Shown here in pieces: positions 1 to 55,105 of a stretch of 64,000 bases of DNA. The notes under the pieces are model-generated. The model saw only the letters and a list, made by a program, of their open reading frames with translations. It was not told where the DNA came from and did not search any database. The stretch is from assembly GCA_037974665.1 (NCBI GenBank), contig CM075768.1, forward strand, positions 66,615,816 through 66,679,815, read 5' to 3'. Position 1 is the first letter of the stretch, and each line of letters opens with the position of its first letter. Position numbers and translations under genes: made by a program. This stretch comes from Ehretia macrophylla (taxonomy: Eukaryota > Streptophyta > Magnoliopsida > Boraginales > Ehretiaceae).

Positions 1-78
1 AACTTCGAAGTTAACCGTGCTTGGGCGAGAGTAGTACTAGGATGGGTGACCCCTTGGGAAGTCCTCGTGTTGTACCCC
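1..78 (+). rRNA. 5S rRNA: 5S rRNA copy 1, cut by the window start
   Basis: Only gene positions 42-119 lie in the window. Differences from the window consensus: C46T, G56C, C95T, C114T. The C box is intact. Confidence 0.93.
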
Positions 79-548
79 CCTTTTCAATTTCTTTTCCTCC
101 GGTTTGGGTTGCCAAGATATTTTATCAACCACATTTCGATTATCGAATCCCACGGCACTGTGGCAAGGCAACTTCCATTCACGTGGAGGCTGGGCCAGCA
201 AACCGAGGGAGTAAGGCTTGTGACCAGGTCTCCTTCGCTCCGGTGCCCATAACTTTTGATTCGTAAGGAGTTACGCGGCGTACTGCATACCGTTGGAAAG
301 CTCTCCGAGAGCTCTACGACGGGGACAGCTAATTTTTAGCATTGCAATTTTTGGAGCCCAAAATTGAACGTTTTCATCAGTTTCGGGCCACTTTTCTAAT
401 TTAGCCCTATTTTTCCGTCCCGGATCGTACGTCATGAGCATTTAAAAGGACGACAACCTTACTCCCAGGACATTAGAGGACACTACATTGCATCGATATC
501 TCGTCTTGCGAGGATGCTGGGTTATTGAAGCGGATGAGTTGTTGTTAA

Positions 549-572
549 GCCCATTGGGCCTTCTGAATGGGC
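549..572. other. conserved hairpin upstream of each 5S gene (example, copy 2)
   Basis: GCCCATT and AATGGGC form a 7-bp stem with a 10-nt loop (GGGCCTTCTG) at -86 to -63. The same hairpin precedes nearly every copy. In P2-flanking units the loop often reads GCGCGTTCTG while the stem is retained. Role unknown. It lies outside the known plant 5S promoter elements. Confidence 0.6.
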
Positions 573-603
573 TATCTCTCTATGCTGGAACTGTGAACCG
601 TTA

Positions 604-634
604 ACACATAAAGGAATTGTGCCCTCAACATGAT
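604..634 (+). promoter_or_regulatory. upstream 5S promoter, common type P1 (example, copy 2)
   Basis: ACATAAAGG with ATAAA at -27 to -23, GC at -14/-13 and a pyrimidine (here T, usually C) at -1. These match the elements known upstream of plant 5S genes: a TATA-like box near -28, GC near -12, and C at -1. The proximal part reads GTGCCCTCAACATGAY. Most copies from 2 to 72 have this form or a near variant. Confidence 0.85.
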
Positions 635-753
635 GGGTGCGATAATACCAGCACTAATGCTCCGAATCCCATCAGAAATCCGAAGTTAAGCGTGCTTGGG
701 CGAGACTAGTACTAGGATGGGTGACCCCTGGGGAAGTCCTCGTGTTGCACCCC
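635..753 (+). rRNA. 5S rRNA: 5S rRNA copy 2
   Basis: Differences: C10A, A27T, G31A, C44A, G72C, C95T, T96G. The A box is intact. G72C at the IE edge is a marker shared with many copies that read GACTAGTACTAGG. Confidence 0.95.
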
Positions 754-755
754 CC

Positions 756-770
756 TTTTCAATTTTTTTT
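756..770 (+). terminator. Pol III terminator (example, copy 2)
   Basis: A TTTT run two bases past gene position 119, then CAA and an 8-T run. Nearly every copy has the same layout, TTTTCAATTTTTTTT. The first run should stop Pol III and the second acts as a backup. Confidence 0.9.
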
Positions 771-974
771 CCTCCGGTTAGGGTTGTCAAGATACTTTAT
801 CCACCACATTTCTATTATCGAATCCCACGGCACCTTGGGCAAGACAACTTCGCTTCACGTGGAGGCTGGGCTCACAAACCGAGGGCGTAGGGCTTGTGAC
901 CAACTCTCCGTCGCTCTGGTGCCCATAGCTTTGGATCCGTAAAGAGTTACGCGGAGCACGGTATACCGTTGGAA

Positions 975-989
975 AGCTCTCCGAGAGCT
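975..989. other. spacer palindrome AGCTCTC-C-GAGAGCT (example)
   Basis: A perfect 7-bp inverted repeat with a one-base centre, about +341 from the gene start. It is kept in most units. Direct repeats of AGCTCT inside it appear to have mediated the 10-11 bp deletions in units 74 and 84, with a similar loss in unit 62. Confidence 0.7.
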
Positions 990-1311
990 CTACGACAAGG
1001 GCAGTTAGCTTGCTAGTTGTGCCCTTTTTGGAGCTCAAAATCGAATGTTTTCATCAGTTTCGGGCCACTTTTCTGATTTAGCTGTGTTTTTCAGTCCCGG
1101 ATCGTACGTCGTGAGCATTTAAATGGACGACAACCTTACTAACAGGAAATTAGAGGACCCTACAATGCGTCGATATCTCGTCTTGCGAGGATGTTGCGTT
1201 GTTGTAGCAGATGGGTTGTCATTAAGCCCATTGGGCCATCTGAATGGGCTATCTCTTTAGGCTGGAACTGTGGACCATTAACACATAAAGGAATTGTGCC
1301 GTCAACATGTC

Positions 1312-1430
1312 GGGTGTGATCATACCAATACTAATGCACCGGATCCCATCAGAACTCCGAAGTTAAGCGTGCTTAGGCGTGAGTAGTATTAGGATGGGTG
1401 ACCCCCTGGGAAGTCCTCGTGTTGCACCCA
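1312..1430 (+). rRNA. 5S rRNA: 5S rRNA copy 3
   Basis: Differences: C6T, G17A, C18T, G64A, A69T, C78T, C119A. The same seven occur in copy 7. The upstream region reads GCCGTCAACATGT. Confidence 0.95.
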
Positions 1431-1989
1431 CCTTTTCAATTTTTTTTCCTCCAGTTAGGGTTGCCAAGATACTTTATCCACCACATTTCTATTATCGAAA
1501 CCCACTGCACCTTGGGCAAGACAACTTCGCTTCACGTGGAGGCTGGGCCAGCAAACCGACGGCTTAGGGCTTATGACCAGGTCTCCTTCGCTCCGGTGCC
1601 CATAACAATTGATACATAAGAAGTTACGCGGTGCACAGCATACCGTTGGAAAGCACTTTGAGAGCTCTACGATGGGGGCAACCTGCTTGCTCGATATGCC
1701 CTTTTTTAGAGCCCAAAATCGAATGTTTTTGTCAGTTTCGTGCCACTTTTCTTTTTTAGTTCTATTTTTTCATCCTGGATCGTACGTCGTGAGCTGTTAA
1801 AAGGACGACAACCTTACTCATGGGACATTATAGGGCCCTACAACGCGTCGATATCTCGTCTTGCGAGGATGCTGGGTTATTGAAGCGGATGGGTTGTCGT
1901 TAAGCACATTGCACCTTCTGAATGGGCCATCTCTCTAGGCTAGGACTGTGAACCGTTAACACATAAAGGAATTGTGCCCTCATCATGAC

Positions 1990-2108
1990 GGGTGCGATCA
2001 TACCAGCACCAATGCACTGGATCCCATCAGAACTCCGAAGTTAACCGTGCTTGGGCGAGACTTGCACTAGGATGGGTGGCCCCCTGGGAAGTCCTCGTGT
2101 TGCACCTC
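1990..2108 (+). rRNA. 5S rRNA: 5S rRNA copy 4
   Basis: Differences: T21C, C29T, G56C, G72C, A74T, T76C, A90G, C118T. Five of these recur in copy 8. A90G falls in the C box. Confidence 0.95.
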
Positions 2109-2665
2109 CTTTTTCAATTTTTTTCCTCCGGTTATGGTTGCCAAGATACTTTATCCACCACATTTCTATTATCGAATCCCACGGCACCTTGGGCAAGACA
2201 ACTTCGGTTCCCGTGGAGGCTGGGCCAGCAAACCGAGGGCGTAGGACTTGTGACCAACTCTCCGTCGCTCCGATGCCCATAACTTTGGATCTTTAAGGAG
2301 TTACGCGGCGCACAGCATACTGTTGGAAAGCTCTCCGAGAGCTCTACGACGGGGACAGCTAGTTTGCTAGCATTGCCCTTTTTGGAGCCCAAAATCAAAC
2401 GTTTTAATCATTTTCGGGCCACTTTTCTAATTTAGCTCTATTTTTCCGTCCCGGATCGCACGTCGTGAGCATTTAAAAGGACGACAAACTTACTCCCAGG
2501 ACATTAGCGGACCCTATAACGCGTCGATATCTCGTCATGCGAGGTTGCTGGGTTGTTGAAGCGGATGGGTTGTCGTTAAGCCCATTAGGCCTTCTGAATG
2601 GGCTATCTCTCTAGGGTGGAACTGTGAACCGTTAACACATAAAGGACTTGTGCCCTCAACATGAT

Positions 2666-2784
2666 GGGCGGGATCATACGAGCACTAATGCCCCGGATCC
2701 CATCAGAACTCCGAAGTTAAGCATGCTTGGGCGAGTGTAGTACTAGGATGGGTGACCCCCTGGGAAGTCCTCGTGTTACACCCC
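2666..2784 (+). rRNA. 5S rRNA: 5S rRNA copy 5
   Basis: Differences: T4C, C6G, C15G, A27C, G58A, A71T, G113A. G113A and C6G both fall in the terminal helix, which pairs 1-6 with 113-118. Confidence 0.94.
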
Positions 2785-3342
2785 CCTTTTCAATTTCTTT
2801 TCCTCCGGTTAGGGTTGCCAAGATAATTTATCCACCATATTTCTATTATCAAATCCCACGGTACCTTGGGCAAGACAACTTCACTTCACGTGGATGTTGG
2901 GCCAGCAAACCGAGGGCATAGGACTTGTGACCAACTCTCCGTCGCTCCGATGCCCATAACTTTGGATCCGTAAGGAGTTACGCGGCGCACAGCATACTGT
3001 TGGAAAGCTCTCCAAGAGCTCTACGACGGGGACAGCTAGTTTGCTAGCATTGCCCTTTTTGGAGCCCAAAATCAAACGTTTTCATCATTTTCGGGCCACT
3101 TTTCTAATTTAGCTCTATTTTTCCGTCCCGGATCGTACGTCATGAGCATTTAAAAGGACGACAACCTTACTCCCAGGACATTAGCAGACCCTACAACGCG
3201 TCGATATCTCATCATGCGAGGATGCTGGGTCGTTGAAGCTAATGGGTTGTCGTTAAGCCCATTGGGCCTTCTAAATGGGCTATCTCTCTATGCTGGAACT
3301 GTGAACCGTTAACACATAAAGGAATTGTGCCCTCAACATGAT

Positions 3343-3461
3343 GGGTGCGATCATACCAGCACTAATGCCCCGAATCCCATCAGAACTTCGAAGTTAAGCG
3401 TGCTTGGGCGAGACTAGTACTAGGATGGGTGACCCCCTGGGAAGTCCTCGTGTTGCACCCC
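3343..3461 (+). rRNA. 5S rRNA: 5S rRNA copy 6
   Basis: Differences: A27C, G31A, C46T, G72C. One of the better preserved copies. The T run begins directly after GCACCCC, without the usual extra C residues. Confidence 0.96.
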
Positions 3462-4017
3462 TTTTCAACTTTTTTTCCACCGGTTAGGGTTGTCAAGATA
3501 CTTTATCCACCACATTTCTATTATCGAATCCCACGGCACCTTGGGCAAGACAACTTCGCTTCATGTAGAGGCTGGGTCCACAAACCGAGGGCGTAGGGTT
3601 AGTGACCAGGTCTCCGTCGCTCCGGTGCCCATAACTTTTTATCCGTAAGGAGTTACGCGGCGCACAGCATACCGTTGGAAAGCTCTCCGAGAGCTCTACG
3701 ACAAGGGCAGTTAGCTTGCTAGTTGTGCCCTTTTTGGAGCTCAAAATCGAATGTTTTCATCAGTTTTGGGCCACTTTTCTGATTTAGTTGTGTTTTTCAG
3801 TCCCGGATCGTACGTCGTGAGCATTTAAATGGACGACAACCTTACTCACAGGAAATTAGAGGACCCTACAATGCGTCGATATCTCATCTTGCGAGGATGT
3901 TGCGTTGTTGTAGCAGATGGGTTGTCATTAAGCCCATTGGGCCATCTGAATGGGCTATCTCTTTAGGCTGGAACTGTGGACCGTTAACACATAAAGGAAT
4001 TGTGCCGTCAACATGTC

Positions 4018-4136
4018 GGGTGTGATCATACCAATACTAATGCACCGGATCCCATCAGAACTCCGAAGTTAAGCGTGCTTAGGCGTGAGTAGTATTAGGA
4101 TGGGTGACCCCCTGGGAAGTCCTCGTGTTGCACCCA
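4018..4136 (+). rRNA. 5S rRNA: 5S rRNA copy 7
   Basis: Differences: C6T, G17A, C18T, G64A, A69T, C78T, C119A, identical to copy 3 in the gene body. Confidence 0.95.
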
Positions 4137-4694
4137 CCTTTTCAATTTTTTTCCTCCGGTTAGGGTTACCAAGATACTTTATCCACCACATTTCTATTAT
4201 CGAATCCCACTGCACCTTGGGCAAGACAACTTCGCTTCACGTGGAGGCTGGGCCAGCAAACCGACCGCGTAGGGCTTGTGACCAGGGCTCCTTCCCTCTG
4301 GTGCCCATAACAATTGAGTCATAAGAAGTTACGCGGGGGACAGCATACCGTTGGAAAGCACTTTGAGAGCTCTACGATGGGGGCAACCTGCTTGCTCGAT
4401 ATGCCCTTTTTTGGAGCCCAAAATCGAATGTTTTCGTCAGTTTCGTGCCACTTTTCTTTTTTAGTTCTATTTTTTCATCTTGTATCGTACCGCGGGAGCT
4501 GTAAAAAGGACGACAAGCTTACTTCCGGGACATTATAGGGCCCTACAACGCGTCAATATCTCGTCTTGCGAGGATGCTGGGCTATTGAAGCGGATGGGTT
4601 GTCGTTAAGCACATTGCACCTTCTGAATGGGCCATCTCTCTAGGCTAGGACTGTGAACCGTTAACACATAAAGGAATTGTGCCCTCATCATGAC

Positions 4695-4813
4695 GGGAGC
4701 GATCATACTAGCACTAATGCACCGGATCCCATCAGAACTCCGAAGTTAACCGTGCTTGGGCGAGACTTGCACTAGGATGGGTGGCCCCCTGGGAAGTCCT
4801 CGTGTTGCACCCC
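4695..4813 (+). rRNA. 5S rRNA: 5S rRNA copy 8
   Basis: Differences: T4A, C15T, G56C, G72C, A74T, T76C, A90G. Sister of copy 4. Confidence 0.95.
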
Positions 4814-5370
4814 CTTTTTCAATTTTTTTCCTCCGGTTATGGTTGCCAAGATACTTTATCCACCACATTTCTATTATCGAATCCCACGGCACCTTGGGCA
4901 AGACAACTTCGGTTCCCGTGGAGGCTGGGCCAGCAAACCGAGGGCGTAGGACTTGTGACCAACTCTCCGTCGCTCCGATGCCCATAACTTTGGATCCGTA
5001 AGGAGTTACGCAGCGCACAACATACTGTTGGAAAGCTCTCCGAGAGCTCTACGACGGGGACAGCTAGTTTGCTAGCATTGCCCTTTTTGGAGCCCAAAAT
5101 CAAACGTTTTCATCATTTTCGGGCCACTTTTCTAATTTAGCTGTATTTTTCCGTCCTGGATCGTACGTCGTGAGTATTTAAAAGGATGACAACCTTACTC
5201 CCAGGACATTAGCGGACCCTACAACGCGTCGATATCTCGTCATGCGAGGTTGCTGGATTGTTGAAGCGGATGGGTTGTCGTTAAGCCCATTGGGCCTTCT
5301 GAATGGGCTATCTCTCTAGGCTGGAACTGTGAACCGTTAACACATAAAGGACTTGTGCCCTCAACATGAT

Positions 5371-5489
5371 GGGTGCGATCATACCAGCACTAATGCTCCG
5401 GATCCCATCAGAACTAACAAGTTAAGCGTGCTTGGGCGAGAGTAGTCTCAGGATGGGTGACCCCCTGGGTAGTCCTCGTGTTGCACTCC
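5371..5489 (+). rRNA. 5S rRNA: 5S rRNA copy 9
   Basis: Differences: A27T, C46A, C47A, G48C, A77C, C78T, T79C, A100T, C117T. The three-base change at 46-48 just before the A box is unique to this copy. Confidence 0.94.
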
Positions 5490-6045
5490 CCTTTTCAATT
5501 TTTTTTCCTCCGGTTAGGGTTGCCAAGATACTTTATCCACCACATTTCTATTATCGAATCCCACGGCACCTTGGGCAAGACAACTTCACTTCACGTGGAG
5601 GTTGGGCCAGCAAACCGAGGGCATAGGGCTTGTGACCACGTCTCCATCGCTCTGGTGCCCATAACTTTTGATCCGTAAGGAGTTACGCAGTGCACAACAT
5701 ACCGTTGGAAAGCTGTCCGAGAGCTCTACGACAGGGGAAACTAGCTTGCTCACTGTGCCCTTTTTGGAGCCCAAAATAGAACATTTTCATCAGTTTCGGG
5801 CCATTTTTTAATTTTGCTATGTTATTCCATCTCGTATCGTACGTCGTAAGCTGTTAAAAGGATGACAACCATACTCGCGGGACATTAGAGGACCCTACAA
5901 TGCGTCGATATCTCGTTTTACGAGGATGCTAGGTTGTTGAAGCAGATGGGTTGTCGTTAGGCCCATTGGCCTTCTTAATGGGCCATCTCTCTAGGTTGGG
6001 ATTGTGAACCGTTAACACATAAAGGAATTGTGCGATCAACATGAC

Positions 6046-22415: not shown

Positions 22416-22968
22416 CATTTTCAATTTTTATTCCTCTGGTTAGGGTTGCCAAGATACTTTATCCACTACATTTCTATTAGCGAATACCACGGCACGTTGG
22501 GCAAGACAACTTCGCTTCATGTGGAGGTTGGGCCCGCAAACCGAGGGCGTTGGGCTTGTGACCAGGTCTCCATCGCTCCGGTGCCCATAACTTTCTATTT
22601 GTAAGGAGTTACGCGGCACACAGGATACCGTTGGAATGTTTTTCAAGAGCTCTACGATGGGGGCAGCCAGCTTGCTCGCTGTGCCCTTTTTGGAGTCCAA
22701 AATCGAACGTTTTTATCAGTTTCGGGGCACTTTTCTGATTTATCTCTTCTTTTCCGTTGTGGATCGTACGTCGTGACCCGTTAAAAGGACGAAAAACTTA
22801 CTCGCGGGACATTAGAGGGCCCTACAATGCGTCGATATCACGTCTTGTGAGGATGCTGTGTTGTTGAAGCGGATAGGTTGTTGTTAAGCCCATTGGGCCT
22901 TCTGAATGGGCCATCTCTCTAGGACTGTGAACCGTTAACACATAAAGGAATTGTGCCCTCAACATGAT

Positions 22969-23013
22969 GGGTGCGATCATACCAGCACTAACGAAGTCCT
23001 CGTGGTGCACTCC
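22969..23013 (+). pseudogene. 5S rRNA copy 35, internally deleted
   Basis: Only about 45 nt remain: gene positions 1-23 join directly to about position 99. All of the A box, IE and C box are gone. The upstream promoter and the downstream T run are kept. It cannot be transcribed from the internal promoter. Remaining changes: T111G, C117T. Confidence 0.95.
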
Positions 23014-23571
23014 CCTTTTCAATTTTTTTTCCTCCGATTAGGGTTGTCAAGATAATTTATCCACCACATTTCTATTATCGAATCCCACGGCTCCTTAGGC
23101 AAGACAACTTTGCCTCACGTGGAGGCTGGGCCCGCAAACCGAGGGCATAGGGCTTGTGACCAGGTCTCCGTCGCTCCGGTGCCCATAACTTTTTATCCGT
23201 AAGGAGTTACACGGCGCACAACATACCGTTGGAAAGCACTTCAAGAGCTCTACGACTGGGGCAGCTAGCTTGCTCGCTGTGCCCTTTTTGGAGACCAAAA
23301 TCAAACATTTTCATCAGTTTCGAGCCACTTTTCTAATTTTTTTCTGTTATTCTGTCCAGTATCGTACGTCGTGAGCTGTTAAAAGGAAGACAACCTTTCT
23401 CGTGGGACATTAGAGGGCCCTACAACGCGTCGATATCTCGTCTTGCGAGGATGCTGGGTAGTTGAAGTGGATGGGTTGTCGTTAAGCCCATTGGGCCTTC
23501 TGAATGGGCCATCTCTCCACGCTTGGACTGTGAACCGTTAACACATAAAGGAATTGTGCGATCAGCTTGAC

Positions 23572-26409: not shown

Positions 26410-26956
26410 CTTTCCAATTTTTTTTGCTCCGGTTAGGGTTGCCAAGATACTTTATCGACCACATTTCTATTATCGAATCCCACGGCACCTTGGGCAAGAC
26501 AACTTCGCTTCATGTGGAGGCTGAGCCAGCAAACCGAGGGCGTAGGGCTTGTGATCGCTCTGGTACCCGTAACTTTTGATCTGTAGTGAGTTACGCAGCG
26601 CACAACATACCGTTGGAAAGCTCTCTGAGAGCTCTACGATGTGGGCAGCCAGCTTGCTCGCTTTGCCCCTTTTTGGAGCCCAAAATCAAATGATTTCATC
26701 AGTTTCGGGCCACTTTTCTTTTTTTGCTATGTTTTTCCGTTCCAGATCGTACGTCGTGAGCTGTTAAAGGGAAGACAACCTTACTCACGGGACATTAGAG
26801 GGCCCTACAACACGTCGATATCTCGTCTTGCGGGGATGCTGGGTTGTTGAAGCGGATGGGCTGTCGTTATACCCATTGGGCCTTCTGAATGGGCTATCTC
26901 TCTAGGCTGGAATTGTGAACCGTTAACACATAAAGGAATTGTGCCCTCAACATGAC

Positions 26957-33844: not shown

Positions 33845-34391
33845 CCTTTTCAATTTTTTTTGCTCCGGTTAGGGTTGCCAAGATACTTTATCCACCACAT
33901 TTCTATTATCGAATCGTACGGCACCTTGGGCAAGACAACTTCGCTTCACGTGGAGGCTGGGCCCGCAAACTGAGGGCGTAGGGCTTGTGACCAGGTCACC
34001 TTTGCTCCGGTGCCCATAACTTTTGATCTGTAAGGAGTTACGCGGCGCACAGCATACCGTTGGAAAGCTCACCGAGAGCTCTACGACTGGGGCAGCCAAC
34101 TTGCTCTCTTTACCCATTTTTGGAACCCAAAATCGAACGTTTTCATCAGTTTTCGGCCACTTTTCTAATTTTGCTCTGTTATTCCGTCTTGTATCGTACG
34201 TCGTGAACTGTTAAAAGGACGACAACCTTACTCAAGGGACATTAGAGGGCCCTACAACGCGTCGATATCTCGTCTTGCGTGGATGCTGGGTTGTTGAAGC
34301 AGATGGGTTGTCGTTAAGCCCATTGGGCCTTCTGAATTGGCCATCTTTATAGGCTGGGACTGTGAACCGTTAACACATAAAGGAATTGTGT

Positions 34392-34424
34392 GATCAACAT
34401 GACGGGTGCGATCAACATGACGGG
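34392..34424 (+). repeat. 15-bp direct repeat at a gene deletion junction
   Basis: GATCAACATGACGGG at 34392-34406 and again at 34410-34424. The first is the promoter plus +1 to +3 of copy 52. The second lies inside the gene, directly before the resumed CCAGACTAGTACTAGG. This is the scar of a slipped or unequal exchange. Confidence 0.9.
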
Positions 34425-35035: not shown

Positions 35036-35154
35036 GGGTGCGATCATACCAGCACTAATGCACCAGATCCCATCAAAACTCCGAAGTTAAGCGTGCTTGG
35101 GCGAGATTAGTACTAGGATGGGTGACCCCCTGGGAAGTCATCGTGTTTCACCCC
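35036..35154 (+). rRNA. 5S rRNA: 5S rRNA copy 53
   Basis: Differences: G30A, G41A, G72T, C105A, G113T. It faces the inverted copy 54; the two transcripts converge. Confidence 0.95.
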
Positions 35155-35472
35155 CCTTTTCAATTTTTTTTCCTCCGGTTATGGTTGCCAAGATCATTTA
35201 TCCACCACATTTCTATTATCGAATCCCATGGCACCTTGGGCAAGACAACTTCGCTTCACGTGGAGGCTGGGCCCGCAAACCGAGGGCGCAGGGCTTTTGA
35301 CCAGGTCTCCGTTGCTCCGGTGCCCATAACTTTTTATCTAAAAGGAGTTACGCGGTGCACAGCATACCGTTGGAAAGCTTTTCGAGAGCTCTACGACGGG
35401 GGCAGCTAGCTTGCTCGCGGTGCCCTTTTTGGAGCCCAAAATCAAATGTTTTTATCTATTTCGGGCCACTTT

Positions 35473-35893
35473 AGGTGCCGTGAGATTCGATAATAGAAAT
35501 GTGGAGGATAAAGTATCTTGGCAACCCTAACTGGAGCAAAAAAAAATTGAAAAGGGGGTGCAACACGAGGACTTCCCAGGGGGTCACCTATCCTAGTACT
35601 ACTCTCGTCCAAGCACGCTTAACTTCGGAGTTCTGATGGGATCCGGAGCATTAGTGCTGGTATGATCGCACTCGTCATGGTTAGGGCACAATTCCTTTAT
35701 GTTTTAACGGTTCACACTTCTAGCCTAGAGAGATGGGCCATTCAGAAGGCCCGATGGGCTTAACGAGAACCTATCCGCTTCAAGACAAGATATCGACGTG
35801 TTGTAAGGTCCTCTAATATCCTACGAGTAAGGTTGTCGTTCTTTTAACAGCTCACGACGTACGATCTAGAACTGAAAAACAGAGCTAAATTAA
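35473..35893 (-). repeat. inverted array segment, about 421 bp
   Basis: Reverse complement of contiguous array sequence: spacer 3' part (from TTAATTTAGCTCTG), promoter, a complete 5S gene, terminator, and spacer 5' part up to CACGGCACCT. The left flank stops at GGGCCACTT, immediately upstream of the sequence that starts the inverted piece. The right flank resumes at TCTCCATCGCTCC, with about 70 bp of spacer missing. This fits an in-place inversion with a small loss rather than an insertion. Confidence 0.93.
35555..35673 (-). rRNA. 5S rRNA: 5S rRNA copy 54, on the minus strand
   Basis: A full 119-nt gene read leftward from 35673. Differences: G2A, A27T, G66A, G85A, fewer than in most copies. 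The upstream box (ACATAAAGG) and a T-rich terminator are present on the same strand. It is convergent with copy 53 and divergent from copy 55. Confidence 0.96.
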
Positions 35894-36301
35894 TTCTCCA
35901 TCGCTCCGGTGCCCATAACTTTTGATACATAAGGAGTTACGCGACACACAGCATACCGTTGGAAAGCTCTTCGAGAGCTCTACGACGGGGGCAGCCAGCT
36001 TGCTCGCTATGCCTTTTTTTGAGCCCATAATCGAATGTTTTCATAAGTCTTGGGCAACTTTTCTTTTTTAGCTTTGTTTTTTCCATCCCGAATCGTACGT
36101 CGTGAGCTATTAAAAGGACGACAACCTTACTCACGGGACCTTAGAGGGCCCTACAACGCGTTGATGTCTTGTCTTGCGAGGATATGGGTTGTTGAAGCGG
36201 ATGTGTTGTCGTTAAGCCCATTGGGCCTTCTGAATGGGCTATCTCTCTAGGCAGGGACTGTGAACCGTTAACAAATAAAGAAATTGTGCCCTCAACATGA
36301 T

Positions 36302-53645: not shown

Positions 53646-54194
53646 CCTTTTCAAATTTTTTTCCTCTGGTTTGGGTTTCCAAGATACTTTATCAACCACA
53701 TTTCTATTATCGAATCCCACGGCACCTTGGGCAAGACAACTTCGCTTCACGTGGAAGCTGGGCCCGCAAACCGAGGGCGTAGGGCTAGTGACCAGGAGTC
53801 CGTCGCTCTGGTGCCCATAACTTTTGATCCGTAAGGAGTTATGCGGCGCACAATATACCGTTGGAAAGCACTTCGAGAACTCTACGACGGGGGCATCAAG
53901 CTTTCTTGCTGTGCCCTTTTTGGAGCCCAAAATCGAACGTTTTCATCAGTTTCGGGCCACTAAGCTCTGTTTTTCTGTCCCGGATCGTACGTCGTGAGCT
54001 TTTAAAAGGACGACAACCTTACTCGCTGGACATTAGAGGGCCCTACAATGCGTCGATATGACGTCTTACGAGGATGCTGCGTTGTTGAAGCGGATGGGTT
54101 GTTGTTAAGGCCATTGGGCCTTCTGAATGGGCCATCACTCTAGGCTGGGACTGTGAACCGTTAACACAAAAAAGAATTCTACCCCTACCATGAC

Positions 54195-55069: not shown

Positions 55070-55105
55070 CTTCGGCAAGACAACTTCGCTCCGGTGCCCA
55101 TAACT
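55070..55105 (+). other. spacer deletion scar, about 60-67 bp
   Basis: CAAGACAACTTCGCT joins directly to CCGGTGCCCATAAC. The intervening TCACGTGGAGGCTGGGC...GTC segment is missing. The two ends share TCGCT, so a short-homology deletion is likely. Confidence 0.85.

What the first reader, a model, noticed from the sequence alone, without database searches (positions are those of the whole stretch)
35473..35893. A single inverted 5S unit inside an otherwise one-way array
One 421-bp block with a complete, well-preserved 5S gene (four changes) lies on the minus strand. The left flank ends where the inverted piece begins in normal order, and the right flank resumes about 70 bp further on. This is an in-place inversion with a small loss, not an insertion from elsewhere. 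Copies 53 and 54 converge, so read-through could make double-stranded 5S RNA.
Basis: seen in the sequence. Interest (0 to 1): 0.75.

Follow-up and report, generated by a model that had tools for sequence, protein, structure and literature searches.

The report
Small flipped unit in decaying 5S array
One ribosomal 5S gene copy in a long, decaying, plant-type tandem array appears to have been cut out and put back backwards in place, with about 70 letters lost; it looks like an ordinary DNA-repair scar, and the sequence gives no clear sign that it does anything special.

Summary
The window is a plant-type 5S rDNA array (677-bp unit). Of 88 Rfam 5S hits, 87 are on + and one, 35555-35673, is on -; a minus-strand scan finds no other unit-sized stretch.

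In unit coordinates (1 = first base of 5S) the left flank ends at 437 (35472). The block 35473-35892 reads 440..677,1..201 backwards, two unmatched bases follow, and the right flank resumes at 271 (35895). The flanking + genes start 1266 bp apart: two units less the junction losses and a 19-bp internal deletion, as an in-place inversion predicts. Neither junction shows microhomology, suggesting end-joining of two breaks (inferred).

The block differs by 13% from each flank, so it is not a fold-back read artefact; only reads can exclude other misassembly.

The double-stranded RNA idea is weak: both convergent genes keep T-run terminators, and CHH C>T decay over the three arms is as expected (16 seen, 15.7 expected), although the inverted copy alone is high (11 against 4.9). 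The gene's four changes are unremarkable (13 of 87 blocks have four or fewer). Inverted 5S blocks are published. A small, ordinary rearrangement.

The parts
35036..35472 (+). left flank: 5S gene 35036-35154 and spacer to unit position 437, normal orientation
   Evidence: Rfam hit 95.1 bits; alignment to unit consensus
35473..35892 (-). inverted block, unit positions 440..677,1..201 on the minus strand, 19 bp (548-566) missing inside; end may be 35893
   Evidence: alignment, minus-strand scan, junction layout
35555..35673 (-). 5S rRNA gene of the inverted block, full length, four changes from the array consensus
   Evidence: Rfam 102.5 bits; changes listed
35893..35894 (.). two bases at the right junction that match neither side (filler; the first may be unit position 439 with C>T)
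35895..36301 (+). right flank: spacer resuming at unit position 271, up to the next + gene; unit positions 202-270 are missing at the junction
36302..36420 (+). next 5S gene, normal orientation, divergent from the inverted gene
   Evidence: Rfam 94.9 bits
35157..35171 (+). T4 and T8 runs just past the + gene (terminator-like)
35538..35553 (-). T4 and T9 runs just past the inverted gene, on its strand (terminator-like)

Best explanation
A single-unit micro-inversion inside a decaying 5S rDNA array. Two double-strand breaks, one at unit position 437-440 of one repeat and one in the 201-271 interval of the next, freed a piece of about 440 bp that was rejoined backwards by end-joining without microhomology, losing about 2 bp at one break and 69 bp at the other. 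The 19-bp gap inside the block is probably a separate small deletion between short TTG repeats; its order relative to the inversion is unknown. Shown: orientation, junctions, losses, length accounting, decay. Inferred: the two-break end-joining mechanism, and that the inverted copy has no new function and decays with the rest of the array.
For: One unit-sized minus-strand block in 64 kb. Left flank ends at unit 437 and the block begins at 440. Start-to-start distance of flanking + genes is 1266 = 1354 - 2 - 69 - 19 + 2 of filler. No homology at either junction, 2-bp filler at one. The block differs from each flanking arm by 0.133-0.134, more than the arms differ from each other (0.103), against a fold-back artefact. 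Deletions at nearby unit positions occur elsewhere in the array: 435-443 at 53961, 266-276 at 26555, 216-276 at 55086.
Against: The block is no closer to its neighbours than to other units: its nearest is 40 places away at 0.107, so similarity does not independently show a local origin; the test has little power, as adjacent + units differ by 0.115 and those more than 30 units apart by 0.125. No reads were available, so misassembly is not formally excluded. Template switching could give the same sequence.
Confidence: 0.8

Rival explanations
1. Replication template switching: a stalled fork jumped to the opposite strand in the next repeat at unit position 201, copied back to 440, and returned at 271.
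For: Gives the same final sequence; repeats can stall forks (recalled).
Against: No microhomology at either switch point; that copying ended just where it had left off (437/440) has no special reason in this model; about 420 bp is long for such events (recalled).
Confidence: 0.09
2. Assembly error: the inverted unit is not in the genome.
For: Tandem arrays are hard to assemble; no reads could be examined.
Against: A fold-back read would give a copy nearly identical to a flank, but the block differs by 13.3% and 13.4% from the two flanking arms and has four variants seen in none of the other 86 blocks. Losses and spacing fit one simple event.
Confidence: 0.07
3. A 5S piece from elsewhere in the array or genome was inserted backwards into a gap left by a deletion.
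For: The block's nearest relative is 40 places away, not a neighbour.
Against: Needs a target loss of about 510 bp and an insert that happens to start within 1-2 bp of the unit position where the flank stops (about 1-2% by chance). Remote nearest relatives are usual in this part of the array.
Confidence: 0.04

Closest known systems
[quoted passage not shown]
   Same: 5S arrays holding units in inverted orientation, seen in long reads (11 of 286 reads, 639 of 7769 genes)
   Different: There whole blocks of tandems are inverted and significant pseudogenisation is said to be absent; here one 420-bp piece lies in a decayed array
Maize Mo17 rDNA arrays, PMC10335936 (passages seen)
   Same: Complete plant arrays with more diverse, TE-bearing old ends; a 3.42-Mb inverted stretch in the 45S array
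   Different: All maize 5S copies are in the same orientation; the 45S inversion is thousands of times larger
Arabidopsis Col-0 chromosome 3 5S clusters of different strand orientation, PMC9757041 (passages seen)
   Same: 5S units on both strands at one chromosomal region of a plant
   Different: Separate clusters, not one unit flipped within an array
Inverted monomers near human macrosatellites DXZ4 and SST1, PMC3081327 and PMC3018141 (passages seen)
   Same: Single or partial monomers inverted relative to a tandem array
   Different: Not rDNA; they lie beside or far from the array, not inside it

Membership tests
5S rRNA gene (Rfam RF00001) | full-length match above gathering score | tested here: met
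   35555-35673, model positions 1-120 of 120, 102.5 bits against 38
Functional plant 5S gene | intact internal promoter, upstream elements and terminator | tested here: inconclusive
   Upstream stretch ATAAA..GCCC..C and T runs are kept; changes at unit 66 and 85, the latter inside the recalled C-box interval 80-97. Box positions recalled, not from a call.
Functional plant 5S gene | transcription | not testable with these tools
   no RNA data
In-place inversion | piece abuts its original position and no net gain of units | tested here: met
   437|440 abutment and 1266-bp spacing
End-joining junction | little or no microhomology, small losses or filler | tested here: met
   0 bp at the left, 0 bp with 2-bp filler at the right
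Fold-back read artefact | inverted copy nearly identical to a flank | tested here: not met
   0.133 and 0.134 from the flanking arms
Inverted repeat that feeds RNA-directed DNA methylation | raised CHH-type decay over both arms | tested here: not met
   three arms together 16 seen, 15.7 expected; inverted copy alone 11 against 4.9, left arm 0 against 5.4, right arm 5 against 5.4. An indirect mark only.
Inverted repeat that feeds RNA-directed DNA methylation | 24-nt siRNAs and CHH methylation at the locus | not testable with these tools
   no small-RNA or methylation data

The most novel reading that the evidence does not exclude
The flip made a roughly 420-bp hairpin source whose transcripts are diced into siRNAs, so that one inverted copy helps keep the array methylated and silent. 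The inverted copy's CHH-context decay, the most extreme of 87 blocks (11 against 4.9 expected, uncorrected P 0.008), would be a trace of this.
Probability: 0.04. Interest if true: 0.55.

Novelty: new member of a known kind. Interest (0 to 1): 0.22.

Why it matters
It shows base by base how one unit of an rDNA array can be flipped, probably by break repair, and kept, in a part of the array where units have few close relatives left. It is a clean junction and a possible marker, but it changes no accepted idea. If the siRNA reading were true, a single inverted unit could act as a silencing source for a whole array.

Tried and rejected
Whole-genome search: no genome is held for this window, so other arrays could not be checked for the same junctions. 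A spacer pattern scanned in viral contigs gave 0 matches. The species is not identified. 'Plant-type' rests on the 119-bp gene (called typical of plants in PMC9055855, passages), on CHG sites decaying almost as fast as CG sites and on recalled plant upstream elements.

Local-origin test by similarity: little power, since neighbouring units are only slightly more alike than distant ones (0.115 against 0.125; none of 2000 permutations as low). Isolation test: the inverted block's nearest relative is the second most distant of 87 (0.107), but the five blocks on each side also have remote nearest relatives (0.080-0.103), so I do not claim that the inversion stopped exchange.

Gene-preservation test: 4 gene changes given 35 in all, P = 0.08, not significant. 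C>T plus G>A share of the block, 20 of 35 against 1188 of 2640 in the other 86 blocks, P = 0.17. Site-by-site, all C/G transitions 20 against 13.1, P 0.036, driven by CHH. CHH excess in the inverted copy: P = 0.008, not corrected for the contexts tried; three other blocks also reach 11 CHH changes (P 0.013-0.017); the left arm goes the other way (0 against 5.4, P 0.003), and the three arms together show nothing. The block was not used for the consensus, while most others were, which leans slightly towards more changes in it.

Breakpoint hot spots: three other deletions lie near the inversion breakpoints; suggestive, not tested for significance.

Literature: ten searches, all but aimed at inverted units. 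I saw no description of a single in-place inverted 5S unit in their listings or in the passages read, but one search listed 20 of 321 papers and one search listed 12 of 47, the library lacks most subscription papers, and I saw passages only of PMC8961926, PMC5437419, PMC10335936, PMC9055855, PMC9757041, PMC3081327, PMC3018141 and PMC2754527.

Full report
What the window is. The window is a tandem array of 5S rRNA genes with a 677-bp unit. Rfam gives 88 hits, one of them cut by the window start; 87 are on + and one on -. A consensus unit was built from the 72 + units with a spacing of 674-680 bp, leaving the inverted one out. A 3705-bp insertion at 39581-43285 is the only stretch of 6 bp or more not covered by matches to the unit. 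No whole genome is held for the window, and the species was not identified.

The observation. A minus-strand scan with the doubled consensus lists five rows: one long match, 35890-35473, two parts of it, and one 33-bp stretch at E=0.006 listed twice. In unit coordinates the left flank runs to 437 at 35472. The block 35473-35892 is 440..677 followed by 1..201 on the minus strand, with 19 bp (548-566) missing inside. Two bases, 35893-35894, match neither side, and the right flank resumes at 271 at 35895. Both junction sequences occur once in the window.

In place or from elsewhere. The + genes on either side start at 35036 and 36302, 1266 bp apart. Two units are 1354 bp. Take away 2 bp (438-439), 69 bp (202-270) and 19 bp (internal deletion), add 2 bp of filler, and 1266 remains. 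The block begins 1-2 bp from the unit position where the flank stops. A chance match within 3 bp has a probability of about 1% for one named end (7/677) and 2% for either. A piece from elsewhere would also need a target loss of about 510 bp. In-place inversion is therefore the simplest reading. Sequence similarity cannot test it well, because adjacent units differ by 0.115 and those more than 30 units apart by 0.125; the block's nearest relative is 40 places away.

Mechanism. There is no microhomology at either junction and about 2 bp of filler at one. This fits two breaks rejoined by end-joining (inference). Template switching could make the same product but usually leaves microhomology (recalled). 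The internal 19-bp gap lies between TTG repeats, as the alignment shows, and looks like a separate small deletion. In 83 gene-to-gene spans examined (the two spans holding the inversion and the 3.7-kb insertion were left out) twelve indels of 5 bp or more were listed, three of them in one broken gene. Deletions of unit positions 435-443, 266-276 and 216-276 lie near the inversion breakpoints, so these positions may be break-prone; this was not tested.

Artefact. A fold-back read would give a copy nearly identical to a flank. The block differs by 13.3% and 13.4% from the two flanking arms, which differ from each other by 10.3%. It carries four variants seen in none of the other 86 blocks, close to the usual number. 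I put misassembly of another kind at 7%.

State of the array. Of 92 matches, five partial ones were dropped, leaving 87 blocks. Blocks differ from the consensus at 30.7 of 439 positions on average; the inverted one has 35 (68th lowest of 87). In the other 86 blocks 45% of changes are C>T or G>A. Over the 72 consensus units, CG and CHG sites change most (12.2% and 11.5% in genes, 16.1% and 14.2% in spacers). Genes change at about three quarters of the spacer rate or a little more in each context, and the promoter intervals, whose positions I recall, are not spared. The tract therefore looks like methylated, silent, decaying copies (inference). The inverted gene has four changes; 13 of 87 blocks have four or fewer. 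Its spacer part has 31 against a mean of 23.8; three of 87 are higher.

Exchange. The closest pairs are a four-unit duplication at about 0.4-5.6 kb (0.016-0.068 at four units apart) and two adjacent units at 30.8-31.9 kb (0.041); several weaker pairs lie at 52-62 kb. The five blocks on either side of the inversion have remote nearest relatives (means 0.094 and 0.095, all blocks 0.080). The inverted block's own value, 0.107, is the second largest of 87.

Convergent transcription. The genes at 35036-35154 (+) and 35555-35673 (-) converge with 400 bp between their 3' ends. Each is followed at once by T4 and then T8 or T9, which end Pol III transcripts (established knowledge, recalled). Read-through into double-stranded RNA is therefore not expected from Pol III. 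The flip does create inverted-repeat arms of about 420 bp (366 identities, 50 mismatches, 21 gap positions on the left) that fold strongly as a single strand (-417.9 kcal/mol; no shuffles are made at this length). In Arabidopsis, loss of 5S siRNAs in Pol IV, RDR2 and other mutants is reported (PMC2754527, passages); the passages I saw do not invoke inverted copies. As an indirect test I counted C>T decay by context against site-specific rates. The inverted copy has 11 CHH changes against 4.9 expected (P 0.008, uncorrected; the most extreme of 87, though three others also have 11). The left arm has 0 against 5.4 and the right arm 5 against 5.4; together 16 against 15.7. A hairpin effect should touch both arms, so I read this as not supported, while the excess in the inverted copy stays unexplained.

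Comparison. Inverted 5S blocks are known in pike (PMC5437419). Maize 5S copies are all in one orientation, while maize 45S has a 3.42-Mb inverted stretch (PMC10335936). Arabidopsis Col-0 has two 5S clusters of different strand orientation on chromosome 3 (PMC9757041). Inverted monomers are known near human macrosatellites (PMC3081327, PMC3018141). I saw passages of these papers only. A single in-place inverted 5S unit was not described in what I saw, but it is a small instance of a known kind of change.

Verdict. Observation confirmed; in-place inversion supported (0.8); double-stranded RNA reading not supported. Interest 0.22.

Noticed in passing
39581-43285: A 3705-bp insertion that starts TG and ends CA, flanked by a 5-bp direct repeat GTTGA, with no terminal self-repeat and a longest stop-free frame of 157 codons: looks like a solo LTR in a 5S spacer. 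It holds a 98-bp tandem duplication at 41915-42104.
   Followed up: partly
1-64000: 5S genes change at about three quarters of the spacer rate in CG, CHG, CHH and A/T contexts alike, with promoter intervals not spared; the tract looks largely pseudogenic.
   Followed up: partly
397-5571: Recent four-unit segmental duplication: blocks at 397, 1074, 1752, 2428 pair with 3105, 3780, 4457, 5133 (distances 0.055, 0.016, 0.039, 0.068).
   Followed up: partly
22922-23095 and 34388-34424: Two broken 5S genes: one lacks unit positions 24-97, the other has several gaps and an 18-bp direct duplication. Neither reached the Rfam threshold.
   Followed up: no
45088, 53201 and 59886: The same 11-bp deletion (unit positions 341-351, 6 bp of microhomology) in three separate units: spread by exchange or arisen repeatedly.
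   Followed up: no
35473-35892: The inverted copy has the most extreme CHH-context C>T excess of 87 blocks (11 against 4.9), while the left arm has none (0 against 5.4); unexplained, may be chance.
   Followed up: partly
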